Part shown: piece after piece, positions 2,417 to 24,944 of the stretch
Layout of the letters: each line of letters begins with the position of its first letter
Position numbering within the stretch: position 1 is the stretch's first letter
From: Nitrospira sp.
Lineage (GTDB): Bacteria > Nitrospirota > Nitrospiria > Nitrospirales > Nitrospiraceae
DNA: 36,281 nt
NCBI GenBank assembly: GCA_016788885.1
Contig: JAEURX010000013.1
Location: 123,820-160,100, forward strand
Direction of reading: 5' to 3'
Position numbers and translations under genes: made by a program
Notes under the pieces: generated by a model
Databases searched by the model: none
Seen by the model: the letters and a program-made list of their open reading frames with translations, nothing else
What the model was told of the DNA's origin: nothing

Positions 2417-3042
2417 CGATCCACTCCTTTCGTCAAGGACTGTCGAAGCCGCCATTCTACTCTCGTGTTAGATTGCCGTCGTTTTCGGAGGGAACGTCAA
2501 CATCGTGCGACATGGGTGAATAGGGCTTGATCCGGTCCAACTGCTGCATGGTCAACAGTATCTCGTCATTCGTGTCTACCTCCAGACAGGGTGCAACGCA
2601 GATTACTACACATCCGAAGCTCCGGTTATGCACGGTTCCCAACCGGCTAACAGCCTGCCACAGGGTTACTAAACGGCGCTCTTAACAATTCTAGTTGAAT
2701 CCAAATAGATTCAGTTATGTATCTAAATAGATTCAGTGCTAGCCCGAACCTCATACATATATTGAGACTGGCGATTGCAATAATCACTCAAAGCAATGCT
2801 TTAGAGTTGAGAGATTTTTCTGCAAGGTGAAGACCAGCATGGCACTACTTATGCTCTGCATAGAGTAAGCAATTTCAGCTCATCACTAAGACCGAGGAAT
2901 CAATTTTTGTATGATTTTAGATAGACATAACTATTACGACATCTGTCCAAGACATGATCGATCACGCATCCAAAATCCTGGCCAGTCTTGTTGAAGAATA
3001 TGACCTTTGATGCCCTTTTGAAATCTTATACAGGCAAACAAA
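2417..3042. other. Non-coding or degenerate stretch
   Basis: About 600 bp without a gene I can support. A 61-codon minus-strand frame (2457-2642) has no recognisable features. The right half is AT-rich compared with the chromosome and may hold the promoter of the cassette that begins at 3043, but no clear -35/-10 pair stands out. Confidence 0.4.
2703..2737. repeat. Two direct copies of a 13-mer
   Basis: AAATAGATTCAGT occurs at 2703-2715 and again at 2725-2737, a 22-bp period (about two helical turns). This spacing would suit a dimeric regulator upstream of the cassette, but no function is shown. Confidence 0.4.
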
Positions 3043-3513
3043 ATGGGATTGAATACGTATGGTCACTTGAGGCCAAACTATTGGAAGCATAACCATGACT
3101 CAGCTGTTTACTCGAGAGTATTTATTATTTTGCTCCTGGCCCTGTGTTTTAGTTGTGACTCTACGAGTAAACAACTCGCGACAGGAGGTTCATCCGAAGT
3201 GAACACAGGAATAGAAAAAAAGTTGGTGGGCGATTGGCTCAATTCTCATGAGGAGAATTCTGGAAAACAAATGATCTTTCGGCCCTCTACGTACCCATTT
3301 CTCCCGTCGCGCGGTCGATATGGATACCAGATAGAGAAAGGGGGGGGGCTGAAAGTGATCCGACCCGGTCCCACTGACAAGCGAGAAATTACCGACGGTA
3401 CTTGGTCTATCGAAGAAGACAGCATACTCATGCTCCGACCTGCGGGCGGAGCGTCCCTTCGTTTTCGGATTATATCCGTCGATGCCGAGCGGCTGGTTCT
3501 TGCCCCACTTTGA
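3043..3513 (+). CDS. Small exported or lipoprotein-like protein
   Basis: I do not recognise the family. The 156-residue product has a charged N-terminal stretch, then a hydrophobic segment at about residues 24-36 ending at Cys38 (LCFSC). This looks like a signal peptide with an imperfect lipobox, so the protein may be a lipoprotein or simply secreted. The mature part (GDWLNS, TDGTWSIEEDSILML, FRIISVDAERLVL) shows the spaced W and L/I strands of small lipocalin-like beta-barrels. No good ribosome binding site precedes the ATG at 3043, and the N-terminal extension before the hydrophobic segment is long, so the start is uncertain. It lies 150 bp upstream of the metalloprotease on the same strand and may belong to the same cassette. 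Confidence 0.6.
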   Translation: MGLNTYGHLRPNYWKHNHDSAVYSRVFIILLLALCFSCDSTSKQLATGGSSEVNTGIEKKLVGDWLNSHEENSGKQMIFRPSTYPFLPSRGRYGYQIEKGGGLKVIRPGPTDKREITDGTWSIEEDSILMLRPAGGASLRFRIISVDAERLVLAPL

Positions 3514-3662
3514 TATTGGCAAAACGATTCCAGTCTGCGAGGTGGGTATCCAGTTGGCTGTTTATCGGGTGACAGATGTGCAGTTTCATGAAATGCACAG
3601 CGATATGTGCACTTCCAGATTTTCACCACCTACTATAAACCAATTAACGAAGGAGGAATACT

Positions 3663-5165
3663 ATGGCCAACGAAGCTCCCCGCCGCACTTGCGGCACCCA
3701 GAACGTGCACCTGAGGTTGATGTCATCAAGCCAAGAATATGTTGCCAACCGTGCACGCAGTAATAATCATGCGCTTGAGTATGCGAGGACTCGCGGTGCA
3801 TTCCAACGGCCTGGCGTGACGGTAATCCCTGTCGTTGTACATGTTGTCTACAACATTCCAGCGCAGAATATCTCTGATGCCCAGATTAATAGCCAAATTG
3901 AAGTCCTGAACAAGGATTTCCGTAAGACTAATCCAGATATTGCCAGCCTTCCGGGTGTCTTTGCACCGTTGGCGGCTGATGCCCGTATCGAGTTCAAATT
4001 GGCAGAAAAGGACCCCGCAAACAGCCCGACCAATGGCATCACTCGTACCAGCACAGTATCGGCTTCTTTCATCGACGATGACAAGGTCAAGAGTGCCACC
4101 ACCGGGGGCCATGACGCCTGGCCGAGTGATAAGTATCTAAATCTATGGGTTTGCCCACTGGGCGGCGGATTGCTTGGGTATGCCCAATTTCCAGGTGGTC
4201 CAACTGCCACAGACGGCGTTGTGATCAATTGCACTGCCTTTGGCACAATCGGTACGGCAGCAGCACCCTTTAACCTTGGCCGAACTGCAACCCACGAAAT
4301 CGGTCATTTCCTCAATCTCAATCATATTTGGGGAGACGACGGATCCGCATGCTCAGGTACTGACTTTGTGGGAGACACACCGAATCAAGCCGGCCCAAAT
4401 TACGGCACGCCGGCTTTTCCTCATGTCACCTGTAGCAACGGCCCTAACGGTGATCTTTTTATGAACTATATGGACTACGTGGATGATCAAGCAATGTTCA
4501 TGTTCACCGCTGGCCAAATAACCCGCATGCAGGCGTGCCTTGACGGAGATCGTTCTACCCTGGGCGTTAAGAAGCTCCCAACGCTCAAGTTTGTCGACGA
4601 CCCCACGCTCAAGTTCAGGGAAGATATCACCACCAAGTTTGCCGATGACCCTTCGCTCAAGTTCGCTGACGATCCCACGCTCAAGTTCAGGGAAGATATC
4701 ACCACCAAGTTTGCCGATGACCCTTCGCTCAAGTTTGTCGACGACCCCACGCTCAAGTTCAGGGAAGATATCACCACCAAGTTTGCCGATGACGGAGGCA
4801 GCGGTTCGATCAAAGTTTTAGATGATCCCATCGGCACCGTCGGTGGCGCCGACCCGATTGGTTCCGGACCGCTGAATCCTGGAGGACCTGTTACAGGGGC
4901 CGGAATGCGCGGAGGAAGCACGCCGTTCATCCTATCTACCCCCCATCATTCCATGGCATGGAAAGGATCTTTCCCTGAGGCCTATCAGGCCCAGTTGACC
5001 AATTACGAGCAACAAATCGAGCAGTTGGAACAATTGCTATCGCAATACCAACAGAGCGAGCAGACTGGGATGCTAACGGATGCAGATCGACAACAAGCTG
5101 AGCAGATCCACCAGGAATACCAGCGTCTAGTAGGTGAGTATTCACGGATGATTCAGGGAAATTAA
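3663..5165 (+). CDS. M43 metalloprotease fused to graspetide-like repeats
   Basis: A 500-residue zinc metalloprotease of the M43 (pappalysin-type) family, starting 6 nt after a perfect AGGAGG. No signal peptide is visible. Residues about 8-60 form a leader typical of these proteins ([14 protein letters not shown]), then the fold begins ([11 protein letters not shown]). Zinc ligands are H211, H215 and H221 in [11 protein letters not shown] with E212 as catalytic base; the usual Gly at the eighth position is Asn218. The Met-turn is MNYMDY at 267-272. After the domain, residues 307-377 are nine tandem octads of form [T/S]-x-K-F-x-[D/E]-D, with a tenth variant, SIKVLDD, at 382-388. A Gly/Pro linker and a Gln-rich coiled coil (about 440-497) end the protein. 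The downstream ATP-grasp ligase suggests these repeats are cyclised through esters and amides. Protease family is firm; the modification is inferred. Confidence 0.93.
4581..4826 (+). repeat. Tandem repeat encoding ten graspetide-like units
   Basis: The 24-bp unit encodes one octad. Three successive units ([16 protein letters not shown], SLKFxDD-P) form a 72-bp higher-order block present about three times with near-identical DNA, including synonymous positions, so amplification was recent or is kept homogeneous. Acceptor positions alternate DD and ED; the x position varies among V, R and A. Thr/Ser, Lys and the acidic pair never vary. Confidence 0.92.
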
Positions 5166-5194
5166 GCGGGACTTAAAACGGGAGGAGTCGGAAA

Positions 5195-6184
5195 GTGGTA
5201 ATCATCATTTCCAGCAAATCGGACACTCATGCTTTGGCAGTACTCGAAGAACTGCGGCAAATAGACGCACCTGTTCGGCTACTGGATCTTTCCGACTTCC
5301 CTCTCCGTTCCAAGCTTTCAATGACATACACAGCGCGAAATGGTCCGCGATTTACTTTAGACACGGATACCGGTTTAATCGACTTTTCGGAGGTCAATTC
5401 CATTTGGTGGCGCCGTCCCCAACAATTTCAATTAGACCCATGCATTCAGAACCAGAGCCATGCTCAGTTCGCGTTCAATGAATCGCAGGAAGCTATCATG
5501 GGTCTATGGCAATCTCTCGATATCTTTTGGATTAATGATCCAGCCCGTGATGCAGCTGCACACCGGAAGGCATATCAGCTTAAGTTGGCACGAGAGCTTG
5601 GAATCCCCACTCCCGAGACGCTGATTACGAACGACCCTAATGCTGCTCGTCAATTCATCAAGATGAATGAGAAGACGATCTGCAAAGCCTTCTCCGCCAC
5701 ACAGGATAATTGGAGAGAAACACGCTTGGTTGGAGAACAAGAGCTAGTCAACATCGACAGTGTTCGCTTTGCTCCCGTGATCTTCCAGAGCTACATTGAA
5801 GCCATATACGATCTTCGAATTACAGTCGTTGGAGACGACATTTTCCCCGCGGCAATCCATTCACAGGAGACGGCTTACGCCGTAGATTGCCGAATTGACA
5901 TTGGCAAAGCTCGAATTGAATCCGTCAAGATTCCTGAGCTAGTACAACAGCAACTCCGCCAGTTGATGAAAATGCTTGGGCTAGTTTACGGGGCCATTGA
6001 CATGCGCCTTGAACCAGATGGCCGATATGTCTTCTTGGAAGTCAATCCCGCTGGTCAATTTCTCTTTATCGAGACTATTACCAAACAACCGATCGCCAAG
6101 AGTCTAGCTTCGCACCTAGTCGCATCGAGCGTATCCAGCAGTATGGTCAAAGCCTCAACTCATTCTGAGCACTGCACGCATTAA
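5195..6184 (+). CDS. ATP-grasp graspetide ligase (MvdC/MvdD-like)
   Basis: A 329-residue ATP-grasp enzyme of the type that makes omega-ester or omega-amide links in microviridin-like peptides. It starts at GTG 5195, 7 nt after a GGGAGGAG site and 29 bp after the protease stop, so the two are probably co-transcribed. The N-terminal domain contains the SIWWRRP strand seen in this family. The stretch WINDPARDAAAHRKAYQLKL then LGIPTPETLITNDP is characteristic of MvdC/MvdD proteins. ATP-grasp hallmarks follow: YDLRITVVG (D206, R208) and the metal-binding EVNPAGQ (E282, N284). By family, it would use ATP to activate Asp/Glu side chains of a substrate and join them to Thr/Ser or Lys side chains. No separate short precursor gene is visible, so the repeats in the adjacent protease are the likely substrate. 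Whether it makes esters, amides or both cannot be read from the sequence. Confidence 0.9.
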   Translation: MVIIISSKSDTHALAVLEELRQIDAPVRLLDLSDFPLRSKLSMTYTARNGPRFTLDTDTGLIDFSEVNSIWWRRPQQFQLDPCIQNQSHAQFAFNESQEAIMGLWQSLDIFWINDPARDAAAHRKAYQLKLARELGIPTPETLITNDPNAARQFIKMNEKTICKAFSATQDNWRETRLVGEQELVNIDSVRFAPVIFQSYIEAIYDLRITVVGDDIFPAAIHSQETAYAVDCRIDIGKARIESVKIPELVQQQLRQLMKMLGLVYGAIDMRLEPDGRYVFLEVNPAGQFLFIETITKQPIAKSLASHLVASSVSSSMVKASTHSEHCTH

Positions 6185-8871: not shown

Positions 8872-9207
8872 ATGACACACCCTACTTTGTCCTATAGCCA
8901 TTTGCAAGCCTGGAACGCCATCGCCCAAGAGTTCAGGCGCGAGCTTTCCATTTGCACGGAGTGGAATGATCCGCTTGTCGCCGATCGCTTAGATCAGTTC
9001 GAATCACTCATTAATCGTTGTCTATTGGTGGTGCCCAAGCCGGAGGGGGCCCCTTCGTTCCCCGTTCCCCTTCAAACCTCGAATTTCGCCCAGGCATGTA
9101 CCCCAGAGGATGACGGCGACCTCCACGGCTTCGAGTCAGTAGGCAGCATTATCCAGAGGTTCGATCTTACCCAACCACCCCTCCTCCACCCAAAGGTGAA
9201 GCCGTGA
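8872..9207 (+). CDS. Hypothetical protein of the replication cluster
   Basis: A 111-residue protein with no motif I recognise. The first half is helical (YSHLQAWNAIAQEFRRELSI...ADRLDQFESLINRCLLVV), the second half Pro-rich and probably disordered. It is preceded by GAGGAAAGG at a good distance, and its stop overlaps the GTG start of the following DUF1376 gene, so the two are translationally coupled. That coupling supports a real gene serving the same replication module. Confidence 0.65.
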   Translation: MTHPTLSYSHLQAWNAIAQEFRRELSICTEWNDPLVADRLDQFESLINRCLLVVPKPEGAPSFPVPLQTSNFAQACTPEDDGDLHGFESVGSIIQRFDLTQPPLLHPKVKP

Positions 9208-9956
9208 ACCGAGCTCCTGCTTTTCAATTCTATCCTAGGACGTTGTTGGACTTTCGGGTGCAGCGCATGAGCCTCGCGGCTCAAGGAGCCTACATTCGGC
9301 TACTTGGCTACATGTGGGCAGACGGTGAGAAACAGTGTTCCATCGTAGATAACAATGAGTGCCTCGCACGTGCCCTCGGGATTCCGGTTGAAGAATGGAT
9401 GTCGCTCCGCAAGGAAATTCAATACGACGGCGATCCAATTTTTGAGGAAAAAAATGGGCTGTTAGTGTCCGCATACTTGCGAGAGGCAGCACTGAAGCAA
9501 CGCAAGTATCGGCAATTGCAGTCAAAGAAAGGGGTGCGTTCCGCTGAAGCGCGGCGCAACCAGGGTTCGTGTCGGGTTGAACCGGAGTACCAACCGAAAG
9601 GCAACTCTTCCTCTTCATCTTTATCTTCATCTTCTCTTGATTATACAGAACAAGAGAAAGCGCCAAAACTTCGGAGTGCAGCCACCAATCCAGCGGGGTT
9701 CGAAGAATTCTGGGCTGCCTATCCAAAGAAGGAAGGCCGTAAGGCATGCCTGCAGTGGTGGCGGAAGCATCGGCCATTGGCCGACCTTCTCGCCATCATG
9801 CTCGCCCAAATCGCAGCGGCCAAGCAAACCAAGAAGTGGCAGGACGAAGGAGGCAGGTACATCCCAATGCCGGCAACGTGGCTCAACCAAGAACGTTGGA
9901 ATGATGAACTGCCCTCAAAAGGTTCAATGTGCTCACAGATTGAGGTGGAGCTATGA
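9204..9956 (+). CDS. DUF1376-type replication protein
   Basis: A 250-residue protein of the DUF1376 family found in phages and integrated elements, usually beside replication genes. The N-terminal domain (about 1-95) starts FQFYPRTLLDF and contains AAQGAYIRLLGYMWADG, the family signature. A Ser-rich linker of low complexity (about 133-145) follows. The C-terminal part (FEEFWAAYPKKEGRKAC...YIPMPATWLNQERWNDE) is the short region often found at the end of phage replication-initiation proteins. The start is a GTG overlapping the previous stop, and the end overlaps the next start by four bases (ATGA). The exact role is not established; context suggests loading or initiating replication with the primase-helicase. 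Confidence 0.85.
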   Translation: MNRAPAFQFYPRTLLDFRVQRMSLAAQGAYIRLLGYMWADGEKQCSIVDNNECLARALGIPVEEWMSLRKEIQYDGDPIFEEKNGLLVSAYLREAALKQRKYRQLQSKKGVRSAEARRNQGSCRVEPEYQPKGNSSSSSLSSSSLDYTEQEKAPKLRSAATNPAGFEEFWAAYPKKEGRKACLQWWRKHRPLADLLAIMLAQIAAAKQTKKWQDEGGRYIPMPATWLNQERWNDELPSKGSMCSQIEVEL

Positions 9957-11674
9957 CCCAGGCCAAGAAAACTTTTGAGGATGTACGGATTGATCTGCAG
10001 GACCGTTCAGGAGTGGAAGTTCAGACCACTTGTCCCCAATGCAGTCACACTAGAAAGAAGGCGAAGGGGCGGTGTTTGTCCGTCAATACGATTGAAGGTG
10101 TCTGGTGTTGCCACCACTGTGGCTGGAGCGGCTCACTCAAGGCGGGCGAGGAATCTCGGTCCCAGCCCCCGAGACGGATCGTCCGCCCTTCTTTCGAAAA
10201 GCCGTCCACGGTGCCTGAGGTGCTTCATGAATGGTTTGCACGACGCGGGATTACCGAATCTATCGTGGGCCGGTATGGCATTGCTCTCCAGGATGTGTAT
10301 TTGCCGCAACGCGAGGAAGAAGTTCCGTGCATTGTCTTTCCATACATGCGAAACGACGAAGTGGTCAATCTCAAATACCGCTCGCTGGAGGGGAAAGATT
10401 TCCGACAAGTGCGCGGAGCGGAAAAAGTCTTCTATGGATTGGACGATCTAACAGAATCCTGGGCGGCAATCGTGGAAGGCGAATGCGACAAGCTGGCCCT
10501 CGCGGTGGCTGGTATCGCCAATGCGATTAGTGTTCCGGATGGCGCTCCCCCGCCCAATTCCAGGCCAAGCGATACGAAGTTTGATTTTCTCACGAATTGC
10601 GCCGCGCAGCTGGACTCCCTCAAGAAGATTGTCCTCGCCGTGGACCAGGACGCTGCAGGTCAGACCCTTGAGGCAGAGCTTGCCAGACGTTTAGGGCCCG
10701 GGCGTTGCTATCGCGTGCGGTGGCCAGAAGGCTGCAAGGACGCCAATGACGTGCTGGTCCAGAAAGGGGCCGATGAATTACGACGATGTATCGAGGAAGC
10801 CAAGCCCTACCCCCTAGAGGGGGTTTTTAGTGTGGCGGATTTGGCGGATGACGTGATGTCTCTGTACCAAGGCGGATTTCAGCGCGGGGCATCAACGGGC
10901 TGGGAGTCTGTGGACCGACATTATACGGTGCGTCCTGGGGAACTCACCGTCGTAACTGGTATCCCCTCACACGGGAAAAGTCAGTTCCTCGATGCCCTCG
11001 TGATGAATTTGGCCAAGCAGGACGATTGGCCTTTCGCGGTGTGTTCCCCCGAGAATATGCCGGTATCGCGACATGTGGCAAAGCTGACGGAGCAATATAC
11101 CGGGCAACCCTTTGGGCCCGGCGCTATGCCTCGCTGTTCTCCCCTGGTGCTTGCCGAAGCGTTGAACTGGCTAGAACACCGGTTTGTGTTTATTGCGCCA
11201 GACGAGGCCGTAACCATTCCTGCCATTCTTGAGCAGGCGAAGTTGCTGGTCGCTCGGTGCGGAATCCGGGGGTTGATTCTTGATCCATGGAACGAGTTTG
11301 AACACACCCGGCCCCACGGCCAAACGGAGACGGAATATATTTCGACATCGCTAGGCCAGCTCCGCCGATTTGCGCGTGCCTATCAGGTACATGTGTGGGT
11401 CGTGGCCCATCCTCAAAAGCTGTACCGTCTCGATGACAAGACATACCCTGTTCCAACCCCCTACGACATTAGCGGCTCAGCGCATTGGCGTAATAAGGCC
11501 GACAATTGCCTCACCGTTTGGCGCGATGAAAAGCTGCCGGACGAACCGGTGCAAATCCATGTGCAAAAAGTACGGTTTAGGGAAGTGGGTAGTCCGGGCG
11601 TAGCCTTGCTTCGGTTTAACCGCGTGACCGGGCAGTATCAGGACTACCTTCCATTCGTAGACCCTTCATCATAG
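9953..11674 (+). CDS. Primase-helicase (zinc ribbon, TOPRIM, DnaB-like)
   Basis: A 573-residue bifunctional replication protein like phage T7 gp4 or Twinkle. An N-terminal zinc ribbon has C27/C30 and C52 or C53/C56. A TOPRIM primase-type core follows, with E175 in AAIVEGECDK and D231-x-D233 in LAVDQDAAG. The RecA-like helicase half (about 290-560) has Walker A GIPSHGKS (336-343), Walker B-like GLILDPWNEF, and a DnaB-type final segment (YDISGSAHWRNKADNCLTVWR). It would unwind DNA and lay primers for replication of the excised element. It starts in a four-base overlap with DUF1376 and closes that operon. The family assignment is firm; TOPRIM activity is inferred from motifs. Confidence 0.92.
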   Translation: MTQAKKTFEDVRIDLQDRSGVEVQTTCPQCSHTRKKAKGRCLSVNTIEGVWCCHHCGWSGSLKAGEESRSQPPRRIVRPSFEKPSTVPEVLHEWFARRGITESIVGRYGIALQDVYLPQREEEVPCIVFPYMRNDEVVNLKYRSLEGKDFRQVRGAEKVFYGLDDLTESWAAIVEGECDKLALAVAGIANAISVPDGAPPPNSRPSDTKFDFLTNCAAQLDSLKKIVLAVDQDAAGQTLEAELARRLGPGRCYRVRWPEGCKDANDVLVQKGADELRRCIEEAKPYPLEGVFSVADLADDVMSLYQGGFQRGASTGWESVDRHYTVRPGELTVVTGIPSHGKSQFLDALVMNLAKQDDWPFAVCSPENMPVSRHVAKLTEQYTGQPFGPGAMPRCSPLVLAEALNWLEHRFVFIAPDEAVTIPAILEQAKLLVARCGIRGLILDPWNEFEHTRPHGQTETEYISTSLGQLRRFARAYQVHVWVVAHPQKLYRLDDKTYPVPTPYDISGSAHWRNKADNCLTVWRDEKLPDEPVQIHVQKVRFREVGSPGVALLRFNRVTGQYQDYLPFVDPSS

Positions 11675-11832
11675 AGGGCTTCGGAGACATCATGGAAACG
11701 GCATCATCGTCTAGCGTAGCCGCGATCAAATTGTGAACGGTGGACGATCTACATGATGGAAATTGAGGTTCAAAGTTGCGATTGGCTGAAGCCAGCACCG
11801 GAAAGGTGTGTAGCAGAAAGGCTAGGTAATTA

Positions 11833-12042
11833 ATGAAAGAAGACAGGACCTTTGCACGGCTCATCAGTATCAAGGAGGCTGCGGCATATACCGGCCTTTC
11901 CATCCACACCGTTTACACCATGGTCAGTCAACGGCGTATCCCTTTCGTGAAGATGGGTCGGCTCGTGAAATTTGATGTGGCCCTCCTGGATACGTGGATT
12001 AAACAGCGTACCGTTATGCCGATCAGTTCGCATCGCCCTTGA
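11833..12042 (+). CDS. AlpA/excisionase-type HTH protein
   Basis: A 69-residue protein with a complete HTH_17 domain: ISIKEAAAYTGLSIHTVYTMVSQRRIPFVKMGRLVKF, then FDVALLDTWIKQ. This group includes excisionases and AlpA-like activators in integrative elements and satellites. It lies before the XRE gene and the integrase on the same strand, 158 bp after the helicase, and probably begins the recombination control module. Whether it acts as a recombination directionality factor, a transcriptional activator or both cannot be told from sequence. Confidence 0.85.
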   Translation: MKEDRTFARLISIKEAAAYTGLSIHTVYTMVSQRRIPFVKMGRLVKFDVALLDTWIKQRTVMPISSHRP

Positions 12043-12066
12043 CAATGTATGCTTAAAGGATTACAG

Positions 12067-12315
12067 ATGGCCATGCACACACAGTTGAAGGAATGGCGTG
12101 AGAAGCGAGGCTTGAGCCTTCGACAGTTGGCAGCGAAGAGCGGGATTCATCACATGTCGCTGTACAAGCTGGAGGCGGGAAAACTCGACCCCCAGCTCTC
12201 CACGCTCCTTAAGTTGTGTGCGGCATTAAACATCACTCTTAACCAACTCGTTGGGGTGGCCAAAGAACCACGAAAAGGAGGGAAGTCCTATGGGACTCAC
12301 CAAGCGAAAGGATAG
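12067..12315 (+). CDS. XRE-family transcriptional regulator
   Basis: An 82-residue Cro/C1-type HTH protein (LKEWREKRGLSLRQLAAKSGIHHMSLYKLEAGKLDPQLSTLLKLCAALNITLNQLVG covers the whole five-helix domain). I chose ATG 12067 because AAAGGA at 12055-12060 stands 6 nt upstream; an in-frame ATG at 12049 lacks such a site. Its 3' end overlaps the integrase start by 26 bp, and the integrase ribosome binding site lies within it, implying coupling. It is the likely repressor of the element's integrase or replication genes, by analogy with other islands. Confidence 0.85.
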   Translation: MAMHTQLKEWREKRGLSLRQLAAKSGIHHMSLYKLEAGKLDPQLSTLLKLCAALNITLNQLVGVAKEPRKGGKSYGTHQAKG

Positions 12316-13498
12316 TTATTATGTCGAGTTTCCCGTCATCGAGAACGACGGGTTTTTGAGGCTTGCTCGGGGTGTCCCTCATGCCAAGCTGAAACGCTGG
12401 AAGGTGGGATGCCGAAATAAGGAGGAGGCGCGGAAGCAGGAGAGCATTATTAAAACGCATCTCCTGCAAGGCCTTCGTATTGCGCCCGAGGTTCAGCCGT
12501 CCATTGTGACCTTTGGGGAATACGCCGAGAAGTGGCTCGGGGTAGCCAAGGGCAGCCTCGCAGCAAAGACTCATGCGAACTACACCCAACTGCTTGCTCT
12601 CTATATTCTGCCCATCATGCGGGAGTGTCCTATTGCTGGCCTGACGTGGGGGACCATTAAGGCGCTCTTGGCGGTGAAACAGCAGGAAGGTCTTTCCTTG
12701 AATTCGGTGCGACTGATTCGGGCCGTCATCTCCACGATTTTGACCGATGCTGCTGATGAGGAGATTATTTCTGTTAATCCTGTACTGGGACAGCGCCGGA
12801 AACGTCGGGCCAGCCAGGTGAACGCACCTGATGTACATCCGTTGTCTTGGGAACAGAAGCAGATTTTCGAGGAGAAACTGGAGGACATGGAGCGAGCTGG
12901 GACCTTGTCGCCTGCTTATGCCATGCTGCTTCGGTTATATCTAATGACGGGCCTGCGGCCAGCAGAAGGACGGGCCTTGCAACCAGGAGACATTGACTTC
13001 CACGGCAAACGCGTACGGGTGGAACGATCGGCAACCCTGGAGAGTCATGTGAAGAATACGAAGACGGGTGAAACGCGCTGGGTAGATCTGAGCGACGGCT
13101 TACTAGAGAGGCTGAGGGGTTACCTCACGTGGATGAAAGCGGAAGCGATTGCGCAGGGACGAGAAAGCTCGTGGCTGTTCCCGTCTAAGACCGGCTCATT
13201 ACTTGATGAGAGCCATGTGGTCCGAGCCTTCCATCGTGTACTCGACGGAGCCGGATTGCCGAGGTTCCGAGTGTACGACCTGCGCCATACATTCGCCTCC
13301 TTACTCCTCTCCTCAAATGTGCCCTTGCTCTATGTTAGCCACCAACTCGGACACACCAAGCCAACGATCACCTTGAGGTATTATGCTCGCTGGATTCCGA
13401 GTGGGCAGGTGCATCGCGTCAACGTCTTAGATGCCGCTAACACGGTATTAACACCTGCCACTACCGTGACGGTAGCAGGTGTCTCGATTCCCGCCTAA
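12290..13498 (+). CDS. int: Tyrosine integrase of the tRNA-Lys element
   Basis: A 402-residue phage-type tyrosine recombinase. I chose ATG 12290, which follows AAAGGAGGG; an upstream in-frame start lacks such a site. The N-terminal arm-binding part and a SAM-like core-binding domain (EYAEKWLGVAKGSLAAKTHANY) precede the catalytic domain. Catalytic residues: R223 in MTGLRPAEGRAL, R332 in YDLRHTFAS, His in HQLGHTKP, and nucleophile Tyr365 (or 364) in LRYYARW. In the usual H-x-x-R box the first His is Tyr329, a variation known among these enzymes. The gene ends 12 bp from the tRNA-side att copy, the normal place. It catalyses integration into and excision from tRNA-Lys. Confidence 0.95.
   Translation: MGLTKRKDSYYVEFPVIENDGFLRLARGVPHAKLKRWKVGCRNKEEARKQESIIKTHLLQGLRIAPEVQPSIVTFGEYAEKWLGVAKGSLAAKTHANYTQLLALYILPIMRECPIAGLTWGTIKALLAVKQQEGLSLNSVRLIRAVISTILTDAADEEIISVNPVLGQRRKRRASQVNAPDVHPLSWEQKQIFEEKLEDMERAGTLSPAYAMLLRLYLMTGLRPAEGRALQPGDIDFHGKRVRVERSATLESHVKNTKTGETRWVDLSDGLLERLRGYLTWMKAEAIAQGRESSWLFPSKTGSLLDESHVVRAFHRVLDGAGLPRFRVYDLRHTFASLLLSSNVPLLYVSHQLGHTKPTITLRYYARWIPSGQVHRVNVLDAANTVLTPATTVTVAGVSIPA
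13451..13482. repeat. Interrupted inverted repeat at the integrase 3' end
   Basis: ACACCTG-CCA-CTACCGT is followed after one base by ACGGTAG-CAGGTGT: two perfect 7-bp stems with a 3-nt bulge, inside the last integrase codons. It lies about 30-60 bp from the att core, where arm-type or accessory protein sites are expected. It could equally fold as an RNA hairpin closing the integrase transcript. Confidence 0.4.
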
Positions 13499-13510
13499 TG
13501 TGTTGATTAA

Positions 13511-13588
<78 letters not shown>

Positions 13589-21289: not shown

Positions 21290-21619
21290 TTACGTGCGGA
21301 ACAGGAGATAGGCGAGGATTGCCAGAGCAAGCAGGGCCATGGCGGCAAGCATGCTCCGCGTGACGGACAGCGAACGTTGCGTTGTGCGCAACGTCGTCTG
21401 AAGGTCATCAATGGTGTTGGCCTGGACAGCGATGGTCTGTCGGTGGGCGTCAATCTGTTGGTGAAGTGCGGTGAGTATCGGATCGGTAGTCGGCTGTTCC
21501 TCAATCGGCACAGTTGCGCGAAGCTGGCTGAGAGTCTTGAGCAGCTCAGGGGCTTTATCCACGACGACCGGCAAGAGCTTTCTGGCAACCTGCAGCGCTG
21601 TGACCCACGGAATGCTCAT
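21290..21619 (-). CDS. Small C-tail-anchored coiled-coil protein
   Basis: A protein of about 109 residues that I do not recognise. The N-terminal half is helical, residues about 50-85 (DPILTALHQQIDAHRQTIAVQANTIDDLQTTLRTTQRSL) look like a coiled coil, and the last 20 residues (MLAAMALLALAILAYLLFRT) are one membrane span with a basic end. It would sit on the inner membrane with its N-terminus in the cytoplasm. The start may be 21619 or 21649. It is on the opposite strand to the MotA/MotB-like pair that follows. Confidence 0.6.
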   Translation of the reverse strand: MSIPWVTALQVARKLLPVVVDKAPELLKTLSQLRATVPIEEQPTTDPILTALHQQIDAHRQTIAVQANTIDDLQTTLRTTQRSLSVTRSMLAAMALLALAILAYLLFRT

Positions 21620-21954
21620 GCCGACCTGCCTGAATTGTGACTCATACACCTACTAACTCATTCATGACATAAGAAGGATGTGCAAATCCACCTGGCCTGA
21701 GATTCGCGAAGGGCGATGGTGAAGGCTGGAGTCATGCCGCTGGTCGAGGAGGTGTGAGCATACACGCCGGGACGGCAAAAAGGTCCCCCCAGCATCGGCA
21801 GTTCTTGCCGGGTTGCCAAGTTCCCTTCCAGGAAGCCTCTTCCAACTGACTGATTTCTCGTCGTTCCTAGAGCGCGGTTCTCTGGCTCGAATGTTGAAAA
21901 GATCCAGTCCCGGTGTAATCGCATGTGTGACTGTCTTGTGGAGGAGCAGGCGTC

Positions 21955-23187
21955 ATGATGTCTATTTGGGAATTTTTCGGCCGGGACATAACCCTCTTCG
22001 GTGAGCTGCACAGCCCGATGTTGAGTTGGCTTGGCTCCGCAGGGCTGCTGCTCTTGTTTGCGTGGCATGCCGGAAGGCTGACGTCTGCCATTGCCAGTGT
22101 GCAAGGCTGTTACACGCGAGTGTGGCCGACACTCGCCAATCTGGCGGTCAGTCGAAAAAGTCTCCAGTCTGAATGGCTGGTGGTTCCCAATCTCAGCGAT
22201 ATGAAGAAAGCTGCGAATCAGGACGGTGCTCAACCTGAACGGGTCGATCTGGACGATCTCCACACGCTGGATAAGGCAATGCGCCGGGAGCCGCGTCTTG
22301 AGCAGGCCTGGTTACACTTTCGGAAGACATTTGTGGTCGAGCGAACCGCCTGGTTCATCGAACCTAAGGTGTTCGCCACCAGAACGGCGGCGGAGTTCTT
22401 CCCGCGCGACCTGTTGAATAGCCGCTTGAATCTGGCCTTTTACCATCAGTTTCCGTCGTTGATTACCGGCGTCGGGTTGTTGTTCACATTCCTGGCGATT
22501 CTTATCGGCCTGAGCAAGCTGCATGCAGATGGCTCTCATATCGTCGGTATTCAGGGCCTGATCAATGGATTGGCCGGAAAGTTCCTGACGTCCATCGTGG
22601 GCCTGCTCTGTGCCAACGTGTTTGTGTTGCTTGAGAAGTCAGCCTTGCATCGGCTGGCAACAACGCAGCAGCAGTTTGTGACGATGGTGGACGAACTCTT
22701 TCCCCGCAAAACCATGGAGCAGATGCTGGAGAATTTCACGCCGGGGACTGGTTCCTCGCCGGCTTCTGCTGCGAAGGGCGGGATGTCCGGCGATCTCGGC
22801 GATCGGTTAGTCGGGACCCTGACGGAGCGTCTGAATCCGACCGTCACTGCGCTGAGGGAGGCCGTGGAAGCACTGGGTCGACGGGATCACGGTGGTCGGC
22901 CCGCCGCTCCAGACCGGCTGGCAGAGGAACTGTCACGGGTCATGCAGCAGACGATGGCCGTGCCGATCCAAGAGTTGAATCAGGCGATTCAGACGCTTGC
23001 TCGATCGGTTGAAGAGCTGAAACAGGAGCGGCAACCGATCTCTCACGAGCATGAGTTTGAGACGACCCTGTTCGAGGGCGAGTTCTCGCAACCGGTGGAG
23101 GAAGAGGGCACTCCCGATGACAGTATGCTCGGGTTGCGCTGGTTTGCGAACTGGCGGCAAGGCGCCTCTGTGAAGGAGGCGGCCTAA
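21955..23187 (+). CDS. ZorA-like MotA/TolQ/ExbB-family protein
   Basis: A 410-residue inner-membrane protein. One membrane span near 22-40 (MLSWLGSAGLLLLFAW) is followed by a long soluble stretch, then two more spans at about 163-185 (FPSLITGVGLLFTFLAILIGL) and 202-228 (GLAGKFLTSIVGLLCANVFVLLEK). This is the ZorA-type arrangement of MotA-family stator proteins. The C-terminal 160 residues are helical and partly coiled coil (LAEELSRVMQQTMAVPIQELNQAIQTLARSVEELKQ). It starts 8 nt after GGAGGAG. Only one base separates it from the MotB/OmpA-like gene, so they are an obligate pair forming a proton-driven membrane complex. No ZorC, ZorD or ZorE follows, so a defence role is not shown. Confidence 0.85.
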   Translation: MMSIWEFFGRDITLFGELHSPMLSWLGSAGLLLLFAWHAGRLTSAIASVQGCYTRVWPTLANLAVSRKSLQSEWLVVPNLSDMKKAANQDGAQPERVDLDDLHTLDKAMRREPRLEQAWLHFRKTFVVERTAWFIEPKVFATRTAAEFFPRDLLNSRLNLAFYHQFPSLITGVGLLFTFLAILIGLSKLHADGSHIVGIQGLINGLAGKFLTSIVGLLCANVFVLLEKSALHRLATTQQQFVTMVDELFPRKTMEQMLENFTPGTGSSPASAAKGGMSGDLGDRLVGTLTERLNPTVTALREAVEALGRRDHGGRPAAPDRLAEELSRVMQQTMAVPIQELNQAIQTLARSVEELKQERQPISHEHEFETTLFEGEFSQPVEEEGTPDDSMLGLRWFANWRQGASVKEAA

Positions 23188-23188
23188 G

Positions 23189-23941
23189 ATGCGTTCCCAC
23201 TCATCCCCGGATTCCTCGGAACAGTCGTCGGTGTTGACCATCGGGGTTACGGACTTGATGACCTCGTTGGCCGTGATTTTTATTCTCTTGTTCAGCGCGT
23301 ATGTCACCAAGGTTTCGGAAACCGAGGCGCAGACGAAAGTGTCGGTGCCTGATTCCGTGCCGGAGGTGCGGGTGGCGAAGACGATGACGGAAGATATCCG
23401 AGGAGCCTTGCGGGATCACTTTCAGCGGTTTGATCTGTCACTGGATGCGGATCCGACCGACCCCAATGTGGTGCGCATCGTCGTGCCGGACGCGTTGTTG
23501 AATTTTGAGTTTGGCAAGGGGACCCTCTCCGCGGTCGCCGATCAGTTTCTCGTGGATGCAATGCCGACCTACGCCGCGCTCTTGTGCGGGGCCATGCGGG
23601 ATCGCATTGACTCGCTGGTGATCGAAGGGCATACCGACGATCGTGGGTCGGATATCTACAATTTGAAGCTGAGCCAAGAACGTTCGCTCAATGTCATGGT
23701 CAAGGGGCTGGAGGTAATCAAGGATTCGGCGCCCTGGGCCTATCGGTGTTTCCATGAGAAGACGTCCGCCAGTGGCCGGGGCCGGCAGGATTTGGTGCTG
23801 GACCAGTCCCGTGGACTGGATCGGGAGAAGAGTCGACGGGTCGTGTTTAAGATTCGCCTGCGATCGACGGATCAACTGGTAGAAGCGGGGTACAGTACAC
23901 GATCCCTCGACTCCCCGACGGTCAGTTCCCGCCTGTTCTAG
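23189..23941 (+). CDS. ZorB-like MotB/OmpA-family protein
   Basis: A 250-residue partner of the preceding stator. A single N-terminal membrane span (GVTDLMTSLAVIFILLFSAYV, about 19-39) carries Asp22 at its start, the place of the proton-carrying Asp in MotB and ZorB. The periplasmic C-terminal domain is OmpA-like and peptidoglycan-binding: FEFGKGTLSAVADQFL, then IEGHTDDRGSDIYNLKLSQERSLNVM. It follows ZorA-like with one base between. Its stop overlaps the stop region of the convergent SUMF1-fold gene by four bases. Together the pair resembles the Zorya motor, but also orphan MotAB-type pairs of unknown role. Confidence 0.87.
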   Translation: MRSHSSPDSSEQSSVLTIGVTDLMTSLAVIFILLFSAYVTKVSETEAQTKVSVPDSVPEVRVAKTMTEDIRGALRDHFQRFDLSLDADPTDPNVVRIVVPDALLNFEFGKGTLSAVADQFLVDAMPTYAALLCGAMRDRIDSLVIEGHTDDRGSDIYNLKLSQERSLNVMVKGLEVIKDSAPWAYRCFHEKTSASGRGRQDLVLDQSRGLDREKSRRVVFKIRLRSTDQLVEAGYSTRSLDSPTVSSRLF

Positions 23942-24786
23942 TGAGCGGGGGACCGTTGAGCGTCCCTCGCGCAGCGAAATCCCACATCGTTTCGCCTGGC
24001 GTCGGGTGCGTAGCCTGCGCGATTCGCCGATCGTATCGCCGTGGAGTCATTGTTCCAGGCGCCTCCCCGCAAGCTCCGGAGCGGGCCGGCCGAAGGGCCG
24101 CTCGGATTATCACGCGGGGTGAACCGGTAATACGAGGCATCGTACCAGTCAGCGACCCATTCCCAGAGATTGCCCGCCAGGTCGTAGATGCCGTCGGGAG
24201 TCTTGCCGAGCGCCAACTGTCCGACGGTACTCAGGGTGTCATACCCTCGCCACTTGGTTTGCCCTGCGTTCGTATGCCCTTTGGTCGGGTGCGCGTTGCC
24301 CCAAGGGTAGATCCGCCCTTCGGATCCTCGTGCCGCGAACTCCCATTCCGCTTCCGTCGGTAACCGCTTTCCCACCCACCGGCAGTAGTCGCGTGCATCG
24401 TACCAGTTCACGCCAATGACCGGTTTGTGCGCATGGGCGCCGAGGTCGGCCTCGTGCCACTTGAAGGGTGGGTCGGGCTTTTGTGCATGGAGAAACTCGG
24501 CGTAGCGCGAGACGGTCACTTCGTAGGCATCCAGGTAAAAGGGGTTGAGCGTGACGCGGTGGACCGGCTGCTCATCATCCTGGCCGCGATCGTCTCCCAT
24601 AGCAAACTCGCTGCCGGGGATGAGGACCATTAGTGCATCACGAGCTGGGCTGGCTGAGGCGGTATGTGGTGCAGCGGAGCCGGGAAGTGTTGGTCTTGCG
24701 AGGAAGTCGTTGCTGTGGCTCACTCCGGCGGAGAGAACCAACAGCAGTACTGCCAGGATGTAGAGGGGCGGGGAGGTGATTCGCAT
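23938..24786 (-). CDS. Exported SUMF1/formylglycine-enzyme-fold protein
   Basis: A 282-residue protein with a signal peptide (MRITSPPLYILAVLLLVLSAGVSHS) and a SUMF1/FGE-sulfatase fold: LIPGSEFAMGDDRGQDDEQPVHRVTLNPFYLDAYEVT, PVIGVNWYDARDYCRWVGKRLPTEAEWEFAARG, GNLWEWVADWYD, and RGGAWNNDSTAIRSANR...DVGFRC. The two catalytic Cys expected in the RGGSW-x-C region of true formylglycine-generating enzymes are absent, so it is unlikely to modify sulfatases; the fold is common in periplasmic proteins of other function. I chose ATG 24786 because it opens directly into the signal peptide. No sulfatase gene is nearby. Confidence 0.87.
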   Translation of the reverse strand: MRITSPPLYILAVLLLVLSAGVSHSNDFLARPTLPGSAAPHTASASPARDALMVLIPGSEFAMGDDRGQDDEQPVHRVTLNPFYLDAYEVTVSRYAEFLHAQKPDPPFKWHEADLGAHAHKPVIGVNWYDARDYCRWVGKRLPTEAEWEFAARGSEGRIYPWGNAHPTKGHTNAGQTKWRGYDTLSTVGQLALGKTPDGIYDLAGNLWEWVADWYDASYYRFTPRDNPSGPSAGPLRSLRGGAWNNDSTAIRSANRAGYAPDARRNDVGFRCARDAQRSPAH

Positions 24787-24944
24787 TGCGTGATGACCAG
24801 CCAACGGAGCGTAGGTTCAAATCGGAGCGCTGTCGATGACATTGTATCCCGTTTGCGCGAGGAAGTGTGCGTGGAGGTCTGTGTTGACGGAGCGGAAGCG
24901 TCGACGACGAGGGAGGCCTGACCACCGTCACCACACGGAGGATG

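What the first reader, a model, noticed from the sequence alone, without database searches (positions are those of the whole stretch)
21955..23941. ZorA/ZorB-like motor pair without Zorya effectors
The first protein has the ZorA membrane arrangement with a long cytoplasmic helical tail, and the second a MotB/OmpA layout with Asp22. Zorya needs ZorC/ZorD or ZorE, none of which is here; the neighbours are a tail-anchored coiled-coil protein (opposite strand) and an exported SUMF1-fold protein. This may be a new effector set or a non-defence stator.
Basis: partly seen in the sequence, partly recalled or inferred. Interest (0 to 1): 0.5.

Follow-up and report, generated by a model that had tools for sequence, protein, structure and literature searches.

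The report
Core ZorAB-type motor without phage-defence effectors
A pair of genes related to the motor of a bacterial anti-phage system is carried by Nitrospira bacteria as an ordinary inherited gene pair, with a shortened tail and no DNA-cutting partners found, so it probably does a housekeeping job in the cell envelope rather than fight phages.

Summary
The pair is real: 21955-23187 encodes a 410-aa ZorA homologue and 23189-23941 a 250-aa ZorB homologue with the channel Asp22. Sequence, trees and the ZorA model place it in the ZorAB family, apart from the genome's own MotAB, TolQR and two ExbBD sets. It is not a Zorya system: no ZorC, ZorD or ZorE match was found in the genome, and the ZorA tail has 160 aa, against 381-595 in 14 effector-linked ZorA (100 distinct short relatives: 129-206). 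The short form is in all 29 held genomes of the genus, syntenic in the 15 examined, under strong purifying selection, and in 89 of 395 genomes of the phylum, all in one order. Eight long-tail copies in the phylum each lie beside a ZorC-like gene; two genomes carry both forms. The SUMF1 and coiled-coil neighbours are synteny of the genus and its nearest genera. The short pair occurs mostly with flagellar genes (53 of 57 carriers; tree-aware p about 0.03; a urease control shows nothing). Best reading: a peptidoglycan-anchored, ion-driven ZorAB motor kept as a core gene pair, probably derived from Zorya, with a non-defence, envelope- or motility-linked role. The role is inferred.

The parts
21955..23187 (+). 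ZorA-like motor subunit, 410 aa: three long helices of the ZorA layout, Thr178 and Ser213 at the places of E. coli ZorA 147 and 184, short (160-aa) cytoplasmic tail
22486..22488 (+). codon of Thr178, aligned with residue 147 of the E. coli plasmid ZorA L167 (its role in the ion pathway is recalled)
   Evidence: T in 31 of 31 short and 14 of 14 long rows
22591..22593 (+). codon of Ser213, aligned with residue 184 of L167 ZorA
   Evidence: S in 31 of 31 short and 14 of 14 long rows
23116..23172 (+). genus-conserved C-terminal peptide of ZorA (residues 388-406) behind a variable linker; predicted helix 390-403 (low confidence)
   Evidence: median dN/dS 0.072 against 0.175 for the whole tail, 24 genomes; no family-wide motif
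23189..23941 (+). ZorB-like subunit, 250 aa: one membrane helix with Asp22, OmpA/MotB-type peptidoglycan-binding domain
23252..23254 (+). codon of Asp22, the ion-carrying aspartate position
23465..23863 (+). OmpA-like domain (about residues 93-225), with His148, Leu161 and Arg165 at the spacing of Zorya I ZorB H186, L199, R203
   Evidence: residue list from PMC11890865 section 6, spacing matched by hand; Leu161 and Arg165 invariant in 28 rows, His148 is Tyr in many g6-type rows
21290..21649 (-). boundary, not part: 119-aa ORF with C-terminal hydrophobic segment, divergent from zorA
23938..24804 (-). boundary, not part: SUMF1/FGE-sulfatase-fold protein with a signal-like N-terminus, convergent, overlapping zorB by 4 bases

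Best explanation
A two-gene ZorAB-family motor without defence effectors, kept as a core gene pair in Nitrospira and many related Nitrospirales. Shown by sequence: ZorAB-family membership, kept ion-pathway residues and peptidoglycan-binding domain, short tail, no ZorC/D/E match in this genome, presence in every held genome of the genus, strong purifying selection. Inferred from solved ZorAB: five ZorA around two ZorB; the ZorB OmpA domains grip peptidoglycan; ions passing Asp22 between ZorA Thr178 and Ser213 turn the ZorA ring. Inferred and weaker: the turning short tail acts on an unidentified cytosolic or membrane partner in place of ZorC/ZorD, in an envelope- or motility-linked task, because the pair is found mostly in genomes with flagellar genes. 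Probably the lineage arose from a Zorya type I-like operon by loss of zorC, zorD and some 220 or more tail residues; the opposite direction is not excluded.
For: ZorAB membership; the AF2 model of ZorA matches ZorA 8vvn_C at Z 15.1, rmsd 2.4 A over 200 residues, against at most 10.7 for ExbB/TolQ and 7.5 for PomA. Trees: short-tail ZorA is one side of a branch (92/92, 31 rows; ZorA+ZorB 100/100, 29 rows), apart from the genome's own stators. Tail: 100 distinct short sequences 129-206 aa, 14 long 381-595, no overlap. Effectors: a ZorC-like ORF beside 13 of 14 long copies by HMM (six of these ORFs built the HMMs), the 14th annotated as EH signature protein; none beside the short copies in hand. 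ZorC in 1 of 120 relatives, the long-tail G040; a match over the whole ZorD model only there. Core: 29 of 29 same-genus genomes; synteny in the 15 of these examined. Selection: median dN/dS 0.038 motor, 0.054 OmpA domain (24 ZorA and 23 ZorB, pairs with dS 0.05-1.5 only: 112 of 276 and 157 of 253). Flagella: 53 of 57 carriers have FlhA against 12 of 63 non-carriers (Fisher 1.9e-17, ignores kinship); on a TypA tree 13 independent pairs, 5.6 same way and 0.0 opposite on average, median p 0.031 (reverse test 5.8 and 0.1, p 0.039); urease control 1.9 against 3.2, p 1.
Against: No experiment; no partner found. The flagella link has few informative pairs (p range 0.016-0.125), rests on one marker gene and hand-picked genomes, and genome size leans the same way (3.4 against 0.7, p 0.375). 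Three of 34 carriers on the tree lack FlhA and 12 FlhA genomes lack the pair. Holding the long forms together is not rejected (p 0.136, 0.294, 0.0985), so derivation from Zorya is not proven; outgroup branches are very long, and MotA joins the ZorAB side. The ZorB model does not separate ZorB from MotB/MotS (Z 16.0, 15.5 against 15.3). In nine genomes the match runs over one stop; I read this as the end of the gene and checked only one of them (G371, complete 405-aa ORF).
Confidence: 0.72

Rival explanations
1. A defence system with effectors encoded elsewhere: the short ZorAB senses envelope damage by phage and recruits unlinked nucleases.
For: It keeps the residues for ion flow and the peptidoglycan-binding domain that Zorya needs (PMC11890865). 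A type II ZorA can be as short as 378 aa in all (8vvi).
Against: No ZorC/D/E match in the own genome; presence in 29 of 29 same-genus genomes with synteny in the 15 examined is unlike defence genes; the tail, needed for defence in both tested types (PMC11890865), is the shortened and least conserved part of ZorA. ZorF/ZorG of type III were not searched.
Confidence: 0.13
2. An auxiliary flagellar stator or flagellum-anchoring motor that works directly on the flagellar motor.
For: Co-occurrence with FlhA.
Against: ZorA/ExbB-like three-helix layout in the model; Pfam MotA_ExbB only 11.9 bits against a cut-off of 22.9; a normal MotAB beside a CheW-like gene and FlhA lie on another contig, C18, of the same genome; 149 of 236 FlhA genomes in the phylum sample lack the short pair. 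Neighbours in other genera were clustered, and few were named.
Confidence: 0.12
3. A new local effector set: ZorAB with the SUMF1-fold protein and the tail-anchored coiled-coil protein form one system.
For: SUMF1 gene next to the pair in 17 of 17 loci of the genus (15) and two near genera; the coiled-coil ORF in 10 of these 17 by cluster c17.
Against: Both are on the opposite strand; the same loci share many other neighbours (read by eye as PTPS, TypA, PBP), so adjacency is plain synteny; in the loci of other genera the SUMF1 family is not next to the pair (one g10 locus, L032, has a member seven ORFs away).
Confidence: 0.04
4. A decaying relic of a Zorya island.
For: Effectors absent, tail short.
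Against: Median dN/dS 0.038 in the motor and 0.054 in the OmpA domain; no stop inside any listed match.
Confidence: 0.02

Closest known systems
Zorya type I ZorA/ZorB (Shewanella sp. ANA-3 8VVN; 8QYD, E. coli by recall)
   Same: ZorA fold, ZorB with channel Asp and OmpA domain, gene order zorA-zorB, Thr/Ser of the ion pathway
   Different: Tail 160 aa instead of 381-595; no ZorC/ZorD; core distribution; residues 86 and 89 of E. coli ZorA, a calcium site by the title of 8qyh, are His121 and Lys124 here and non-acidic in 31 of 31 short rows (effector-linked rows L155-L158 also lack the acidic residue at 86)
ZorAB of the Zorya I operon in G040, same family (L050)
   Same: Nearest long-tail relative in the concatenated tree (support 96/71)
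   Different: ZorA ORF 612 aa, followed by ZorC and ZorD
Flagellar stator MotAB
   Same: Motor superfamily; OmpA-type periplasmic domain like MotB/MotS
   Different: A subunit not MotA-like by Pfam cut-off, tree or best fold match; separate MotAB in the genome
TolQR / ExbBD
   Same: Three-helix A subunit, Z about 10
   Different: B subunit carries an OmpA domain; own TolQR and ExbBD present separately

Membership tests
Zorya anti-phage system | ZorA and ZorB homologues adjacent | tested here: met
Zorya anti-phage system | Channel Asp in ZorB and Ser/Thr in ZorA | tested here: met
   Asp22 in 28 of 28 rows; T178 and S213 in 31 of 31 short rows
Zorya anti-phage system | Peptidoglycan-binding OmpA domain with residues tested in Zorya I | tested here: met
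   H186/L199/R203 of PMC11890865 matched by spacing to His148/Leu161/Arg165 of the window; His148 is Tyr in many g6-type relatives
Zorya anti-phage system | Long rod-like ZorA tail (required for defence in types I and II, PMC11890865) | tested here: not met
   160 aa against 381-595 in 14 long forms; type II was not in that comparison, its S. kujiense tail spans residues 100-378
Zorya anti-phage system | ZorC and ZorD (type I) | tested here: not met
   whole genome; locus
Zorya anti-phage system | ZorE (type II) | tested here: not met
   none in the own genome; 11 of 29 genus genomes have only partial matches, E 2.0e-6 to 2.2e-5 over 50-70 of 282 positions
Zorya anti-phage system | ZorF and ZorG (type III) | not tested
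   no search spent; the two neighbours hit no PADLOC model
Zorya anti-phage system | Sporadic distribution typical of defence systems | tested here: not met
   29 of 29 in the genus, syntenic in the 15 examined
Zorya anti-phage system | Protection against phage | not testable with these tools
   needs experiment
Flagellar stator MotAB | MotA-type A subunit | tested here: not met
   Pfam MotA_ExbB 11.9 bits, cut-off 22.9; groups with ZorA; MotA joins the ZorAB side by a very long branch
TolQR / ExbBD | Sequence grouping with the genome's own TolQ/ExbB | tested here: not met
5:2 ion-driven rotary motors | Pentamer around dimer, ion-driven rotation | not testable with these tools
   only monomer models made

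The most novel reading that the evidence does not exclude
Reverse exaptation: a phage-defence motor was taken over as a core cell machine. In an ancestor of Nitrospirales a Zorya I-like operon lost its DNA-attacking parts and most of the ZorA rod, and the motor became a permanent, vertically inherited device of flagellated cells, turning envelope or surface load into a cytoplasmic signal.
Probability: 0.3. Interest if true: 0.72.

Novelty: new variant of a known kind. Interest (0 to 1): 0.5.

Why it matters
NCBI's ZorA and ZorB models are named anti-phage, and PADLOC models match this pair, though it stays under the NCBIfam cut-offs. Here is a lineage where such a motor is a core gene pair without effectors, so ZorAB alone should not be counted as Zorya. 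The short form lives in the same phylum as full Zorya, and in two genomes beside it: a natural experiment on what the ZorA tail is for. The Discussion of PMC11890865 (read) presents Zorya as flagellar-type machinery adapted to defence; this lineage may be the opposite step.

Tried and rejected
Graded as weak or dropped: (1) A sensor-kinase-like gene lies upstream of zorA in several genera (cluster c16), but the N-terminal parts differ; I read it as common domains. (2) A family-wide Trp/Arg C-terminal peptide: 62 of 100 short sequences have Trp in the last 40 residues, against 55% expected from composition, so only the genus-level peptide is claimed. (3) Flanking genes both on the opposite strand: true in the window, but over the 37 loci scored the pattern is mixed. 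(4) A relic: rejected by dN/dS. (5) The first TypA tree had three rows read in a wrong frame (median p 0.0625); corrected (0.031). (6) The tables and 44/81 were crossed by hand: in the phylum sample 87 of 89 short carriers have FlhA (missing in G037, G378). (7) G293 and G376, with long open frames, have ordinary short ZorA followed by ZorB. (8) Two slot-3 proteins of long-form operons (L155, L158) did not reach PADLOC ZorC at 1e-20; my own ZorC HMM matched them at 2e-31 and 4e-21. (9) Literature searches listed no paper on effector-free core ZorAB in Nitrospira; only open-licence papers are held, and a Nature paper on Zorya structure that I recall could not be read. (10) Short forms outside Nitrospirota were not searched systematically (one search failed).

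Full report
What is there. Two ORFs lie one base apart on the + strand: 21955-23187 (410 aa) and 23189-23941 (250 aa). The first hits ZorA models (PADLOC PDLC00598, 1.2e-24) and solved ZorA chains (8qyk 1.5e-11, 8vvn 3.5e-9); it stays under the Pfam MotA_ExbB cut-off (11.9 against 22.9 bits). The second hits ZorB (PDLC00609, 7.1e-40) and the OmpA domain (4.6e-8). Both stay under the NCBIfam cut-offs for anti-phage ZorA and ZorB (best 66.1 bits against 100; 32.0 against 400). The ZorA model (mean pLDDT 68, low in the tail) matches ZorA best: 8vvn_C Z 15.1, rmsd 2.4 A over 200 residues; ExbB at most 10.7, TolQ about 10, PomA 7.5. The ZorB model (mean pLDDT 80) matches ZorB and MotS/MotB domains about equally (Z 16.0, 15.5; 15.3), so the fold alone does not tell them apart.

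Working parts. ZorB Asp22 is invariant in 28 of 28 rows. ZorA Thr178 and Ser213 align with positions 147 and 184 of an E. coli plasmid ZorA and are kept in 31 of 31 short and 14 of 14 long rows (their role is recalled). PMC11890865 (section 6) reports that H186, L199 and R203 of a Zorya I ZorB are needed for peptidoglycan binding; by spacing these match His148, Leu161 and Arg165 of the window. Leu161 and Arg165 are invariant in 28 rows; His148 is Tyr in many g6-type rows and Phe in several Zorya I rows. Residues 86 and 89 of E. coli ZorA, a calcium site by the title of 8qyh, are His121 and Lys124 in the window and non-acidic in 31 of 31 short rows; effector-linked rows L155-L158 also lack the acidic residue at 86, so this is not diagnostic.

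The tail. Counting residues after window position 250, the window has 160. Among 100 distinct short-form sequences the range is 129-206 (median 155); among 14 long-form ZorA it is 381-595. Left out of the 100: L068, cut by a contig end; L070, divergent, tail 153; and frames open at a contig end. Type II ZorA was not in this comparison; the S. kujiense one is 378 aa in all with its extension at residues 100-378. Within the genus (24 ZorA) median dN/dS is 0.038 for the motor, 0.175 for the tail and 0.072 for a C-terminal peptide (388-406); only pairs with dS between 0.05 and 1.5 were used.

Distribution. The window's genome has one copy, besides separate MotAB, TolQR and two ExbBD sets. Of 120 relatives 58 have a match: 29 of 29 in the genus (own included), 28 others, and the long-form G040 (G009 and G031 are contig-edge fragments, and the G036 match begins at residue 34). 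ZorB was found in 56 of 120 (55 short carriers and G040); it is missing in G036 and G091, whose contigs end there. Of 395 genomes drawn from the phylum 94 match: 89 carry the short form, all in the window's order, and five only the long form; G371 and G384 carry both. In nine of the 89 the match runs over one stop codon; I take this for the end of the gene, and checked one of them, G371. The best 80 of 121 confirmed loci in the GTDB genome collection carry Nitrospira-type titles, among them Candidatus Nitrospira defluvii, except two titled Nitrosospira, whose contig lengths equal contigs of G002 and G371; the other 41 were not shown, so short forms elsewhere are not excluded. Plasmid hits: 23 of 24 and 21 of 23 are annotated as zorA; the six fetched are long forms.

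Effectors. ZorC: 1 of 120 relatives, G040 (E <= 1e-5). ZorD: 54 of 120 have a match at E <= 1e-10, but only G040 matches the whole model (20-1067 of 1071); the others match parts, mostly the helicase; the window's genome has none. ZorE: none in the own genome, partial hits in 11 of 29 genus genomes. ZorC and ZorD were not searched over the 395. A ZorC-like ORF lies next to 13 of 14 long forms by HMM (six of the ORFs built the HMMs), and next to the 14th by annotation; this includes all eight long copies found in the phylum. Six long forms have ZorD in the fetched stretch. No short-form locus in the set (window and loci from L031 on, flanks up to about 10 kb, less on small contigs) has either at E <= 1e-3. 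This contrast inside one phylum, and twice inside one genome, is the strongest result.

Neighbours. In the 15 loci examined of the genus and in two near genera the pair sits in one syntenic block (read by eye: PTPS, coiled-coil ORF in 10 of 17, zorA, zorB, SUMF1 in 17 of 17, TypA, PBP). In the loci of other genera zorA and zorB stay together but the surroundings change: KsgA-like, oxidoreductase-like, sensor kinases (names from reading, as one search failed). One g10 locus has a SUMF1-family gene seven ORFs away.

Trees. ZorA core: short forms one side of a branch (92/92), stators apart (100/99). ZorA+ZorB: short forms 100/100 and, rooted on the stators, inside the effector-linked forms, nearest to G040 (96/71); MotA joins the ZorAB side by a very long branch. 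Holding the long forms together is not rejected (p 0.136 and 0.294 for ZorA, 0.0985 for both). So loss of effectors and tail is the likelier direction, not a proven one.

A functional clue. FlhA (PF00771) in the same 120 relatives: both 53, short ZorA only 4 (G016, G031, G036, G037), FlhA only 12, neither 51. In the phylum sample 87 of 89 short carriers have FlhA, whereas 149 of 236 FlhA genomes lack the short pair (crossed by hand). To allow for kinship I built a TypA tree of 70 genomes: of 13 independent pairs differing in ZorA, FlhA goes the same way in 5.6 and the other way in 0.0 on average, median p 0.031 (0.016-0.125); the reverse test gives 5.8 and 0.1, median p 0.039 (0.008-0.375). 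Urease as an unrelated patchy gene: 1.9 same, 3.2 other, median p 1. Genome size of 3.5 Mb or more: 3.4 same, 0.7 other, median p 0.375. The link is suggestive, not strong; the genomes were hand-picked, with the discordant ones included.

Mechanism. In Zorya, ZorB is proposed to bind peptidoglycan when the wall is disturbed, ions flow, ZorA turns, and the ZorA rod recruits a nuclease; tail and peptidoglycan binding are required (PMC11890865, sections 6 and 10 read). The Nitrospira pair keeps the anchoring and turning half and lacks the recruiting half. I therefore propose a wall-anchored motor whose short tail acts on another partner in a normal envelope or motility task. Partner and task are unknown.

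What is known. Searches (listings seen) gave no paper that describes effector-free core ZorAB; the MotAB phylogeny paper PMC12505986 (passages seen) left ZorAB out of its trees; [quoted passage not shown] The library holds open-licence papers only.

Noticed in passing
window 3663-6184 (+): M43 metalloprotease ORF (PF05572, 6.7e-16) whose C-terminal part repeats a short Lys-Phe/acidic motif, followed by an MvdD-type ATP-grasp peptide maturase (TIGR04187 4e-76, under its cut-off; PF21068 5e-13): a candidate graspetide locus with core repeats fused to a peptidase.
   Followed up: partly
window 9204-13588: Likely integrated element: primase/DnaB-like helicase (9953-11674) and tyrosine integrase (12251-13498) ending 15 bases before tRNA-Lys; an ORF at 9204-9956 looks like a replication protein by reading but hit no Pfam family. 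GC is lower (0.467-0.484) at 2-4 kb and 5-6 kb.
   Followed up: partly
L050 (G040), L155-L161: Zorya I operons, some cut by contig ends, in other Nitrospirota (ZorA 612-703 aa with ZorB and ZorC-like, ZorD in six); two genomes (G371, G384) carry these beside the short core pair.
   Followed up: yes
L070 (G091) 2598-3719: A divergent short ZorA (373 aa) in another family of the order, with what reads as a ZorB start right behind it at the contig end.
   Followed up: partly
L034, L035, L039-L044, L070: A sensor-kinase-like gene lies divergently upstream of zorA in several genera, with different N-terminal parts.
   Followed up: no
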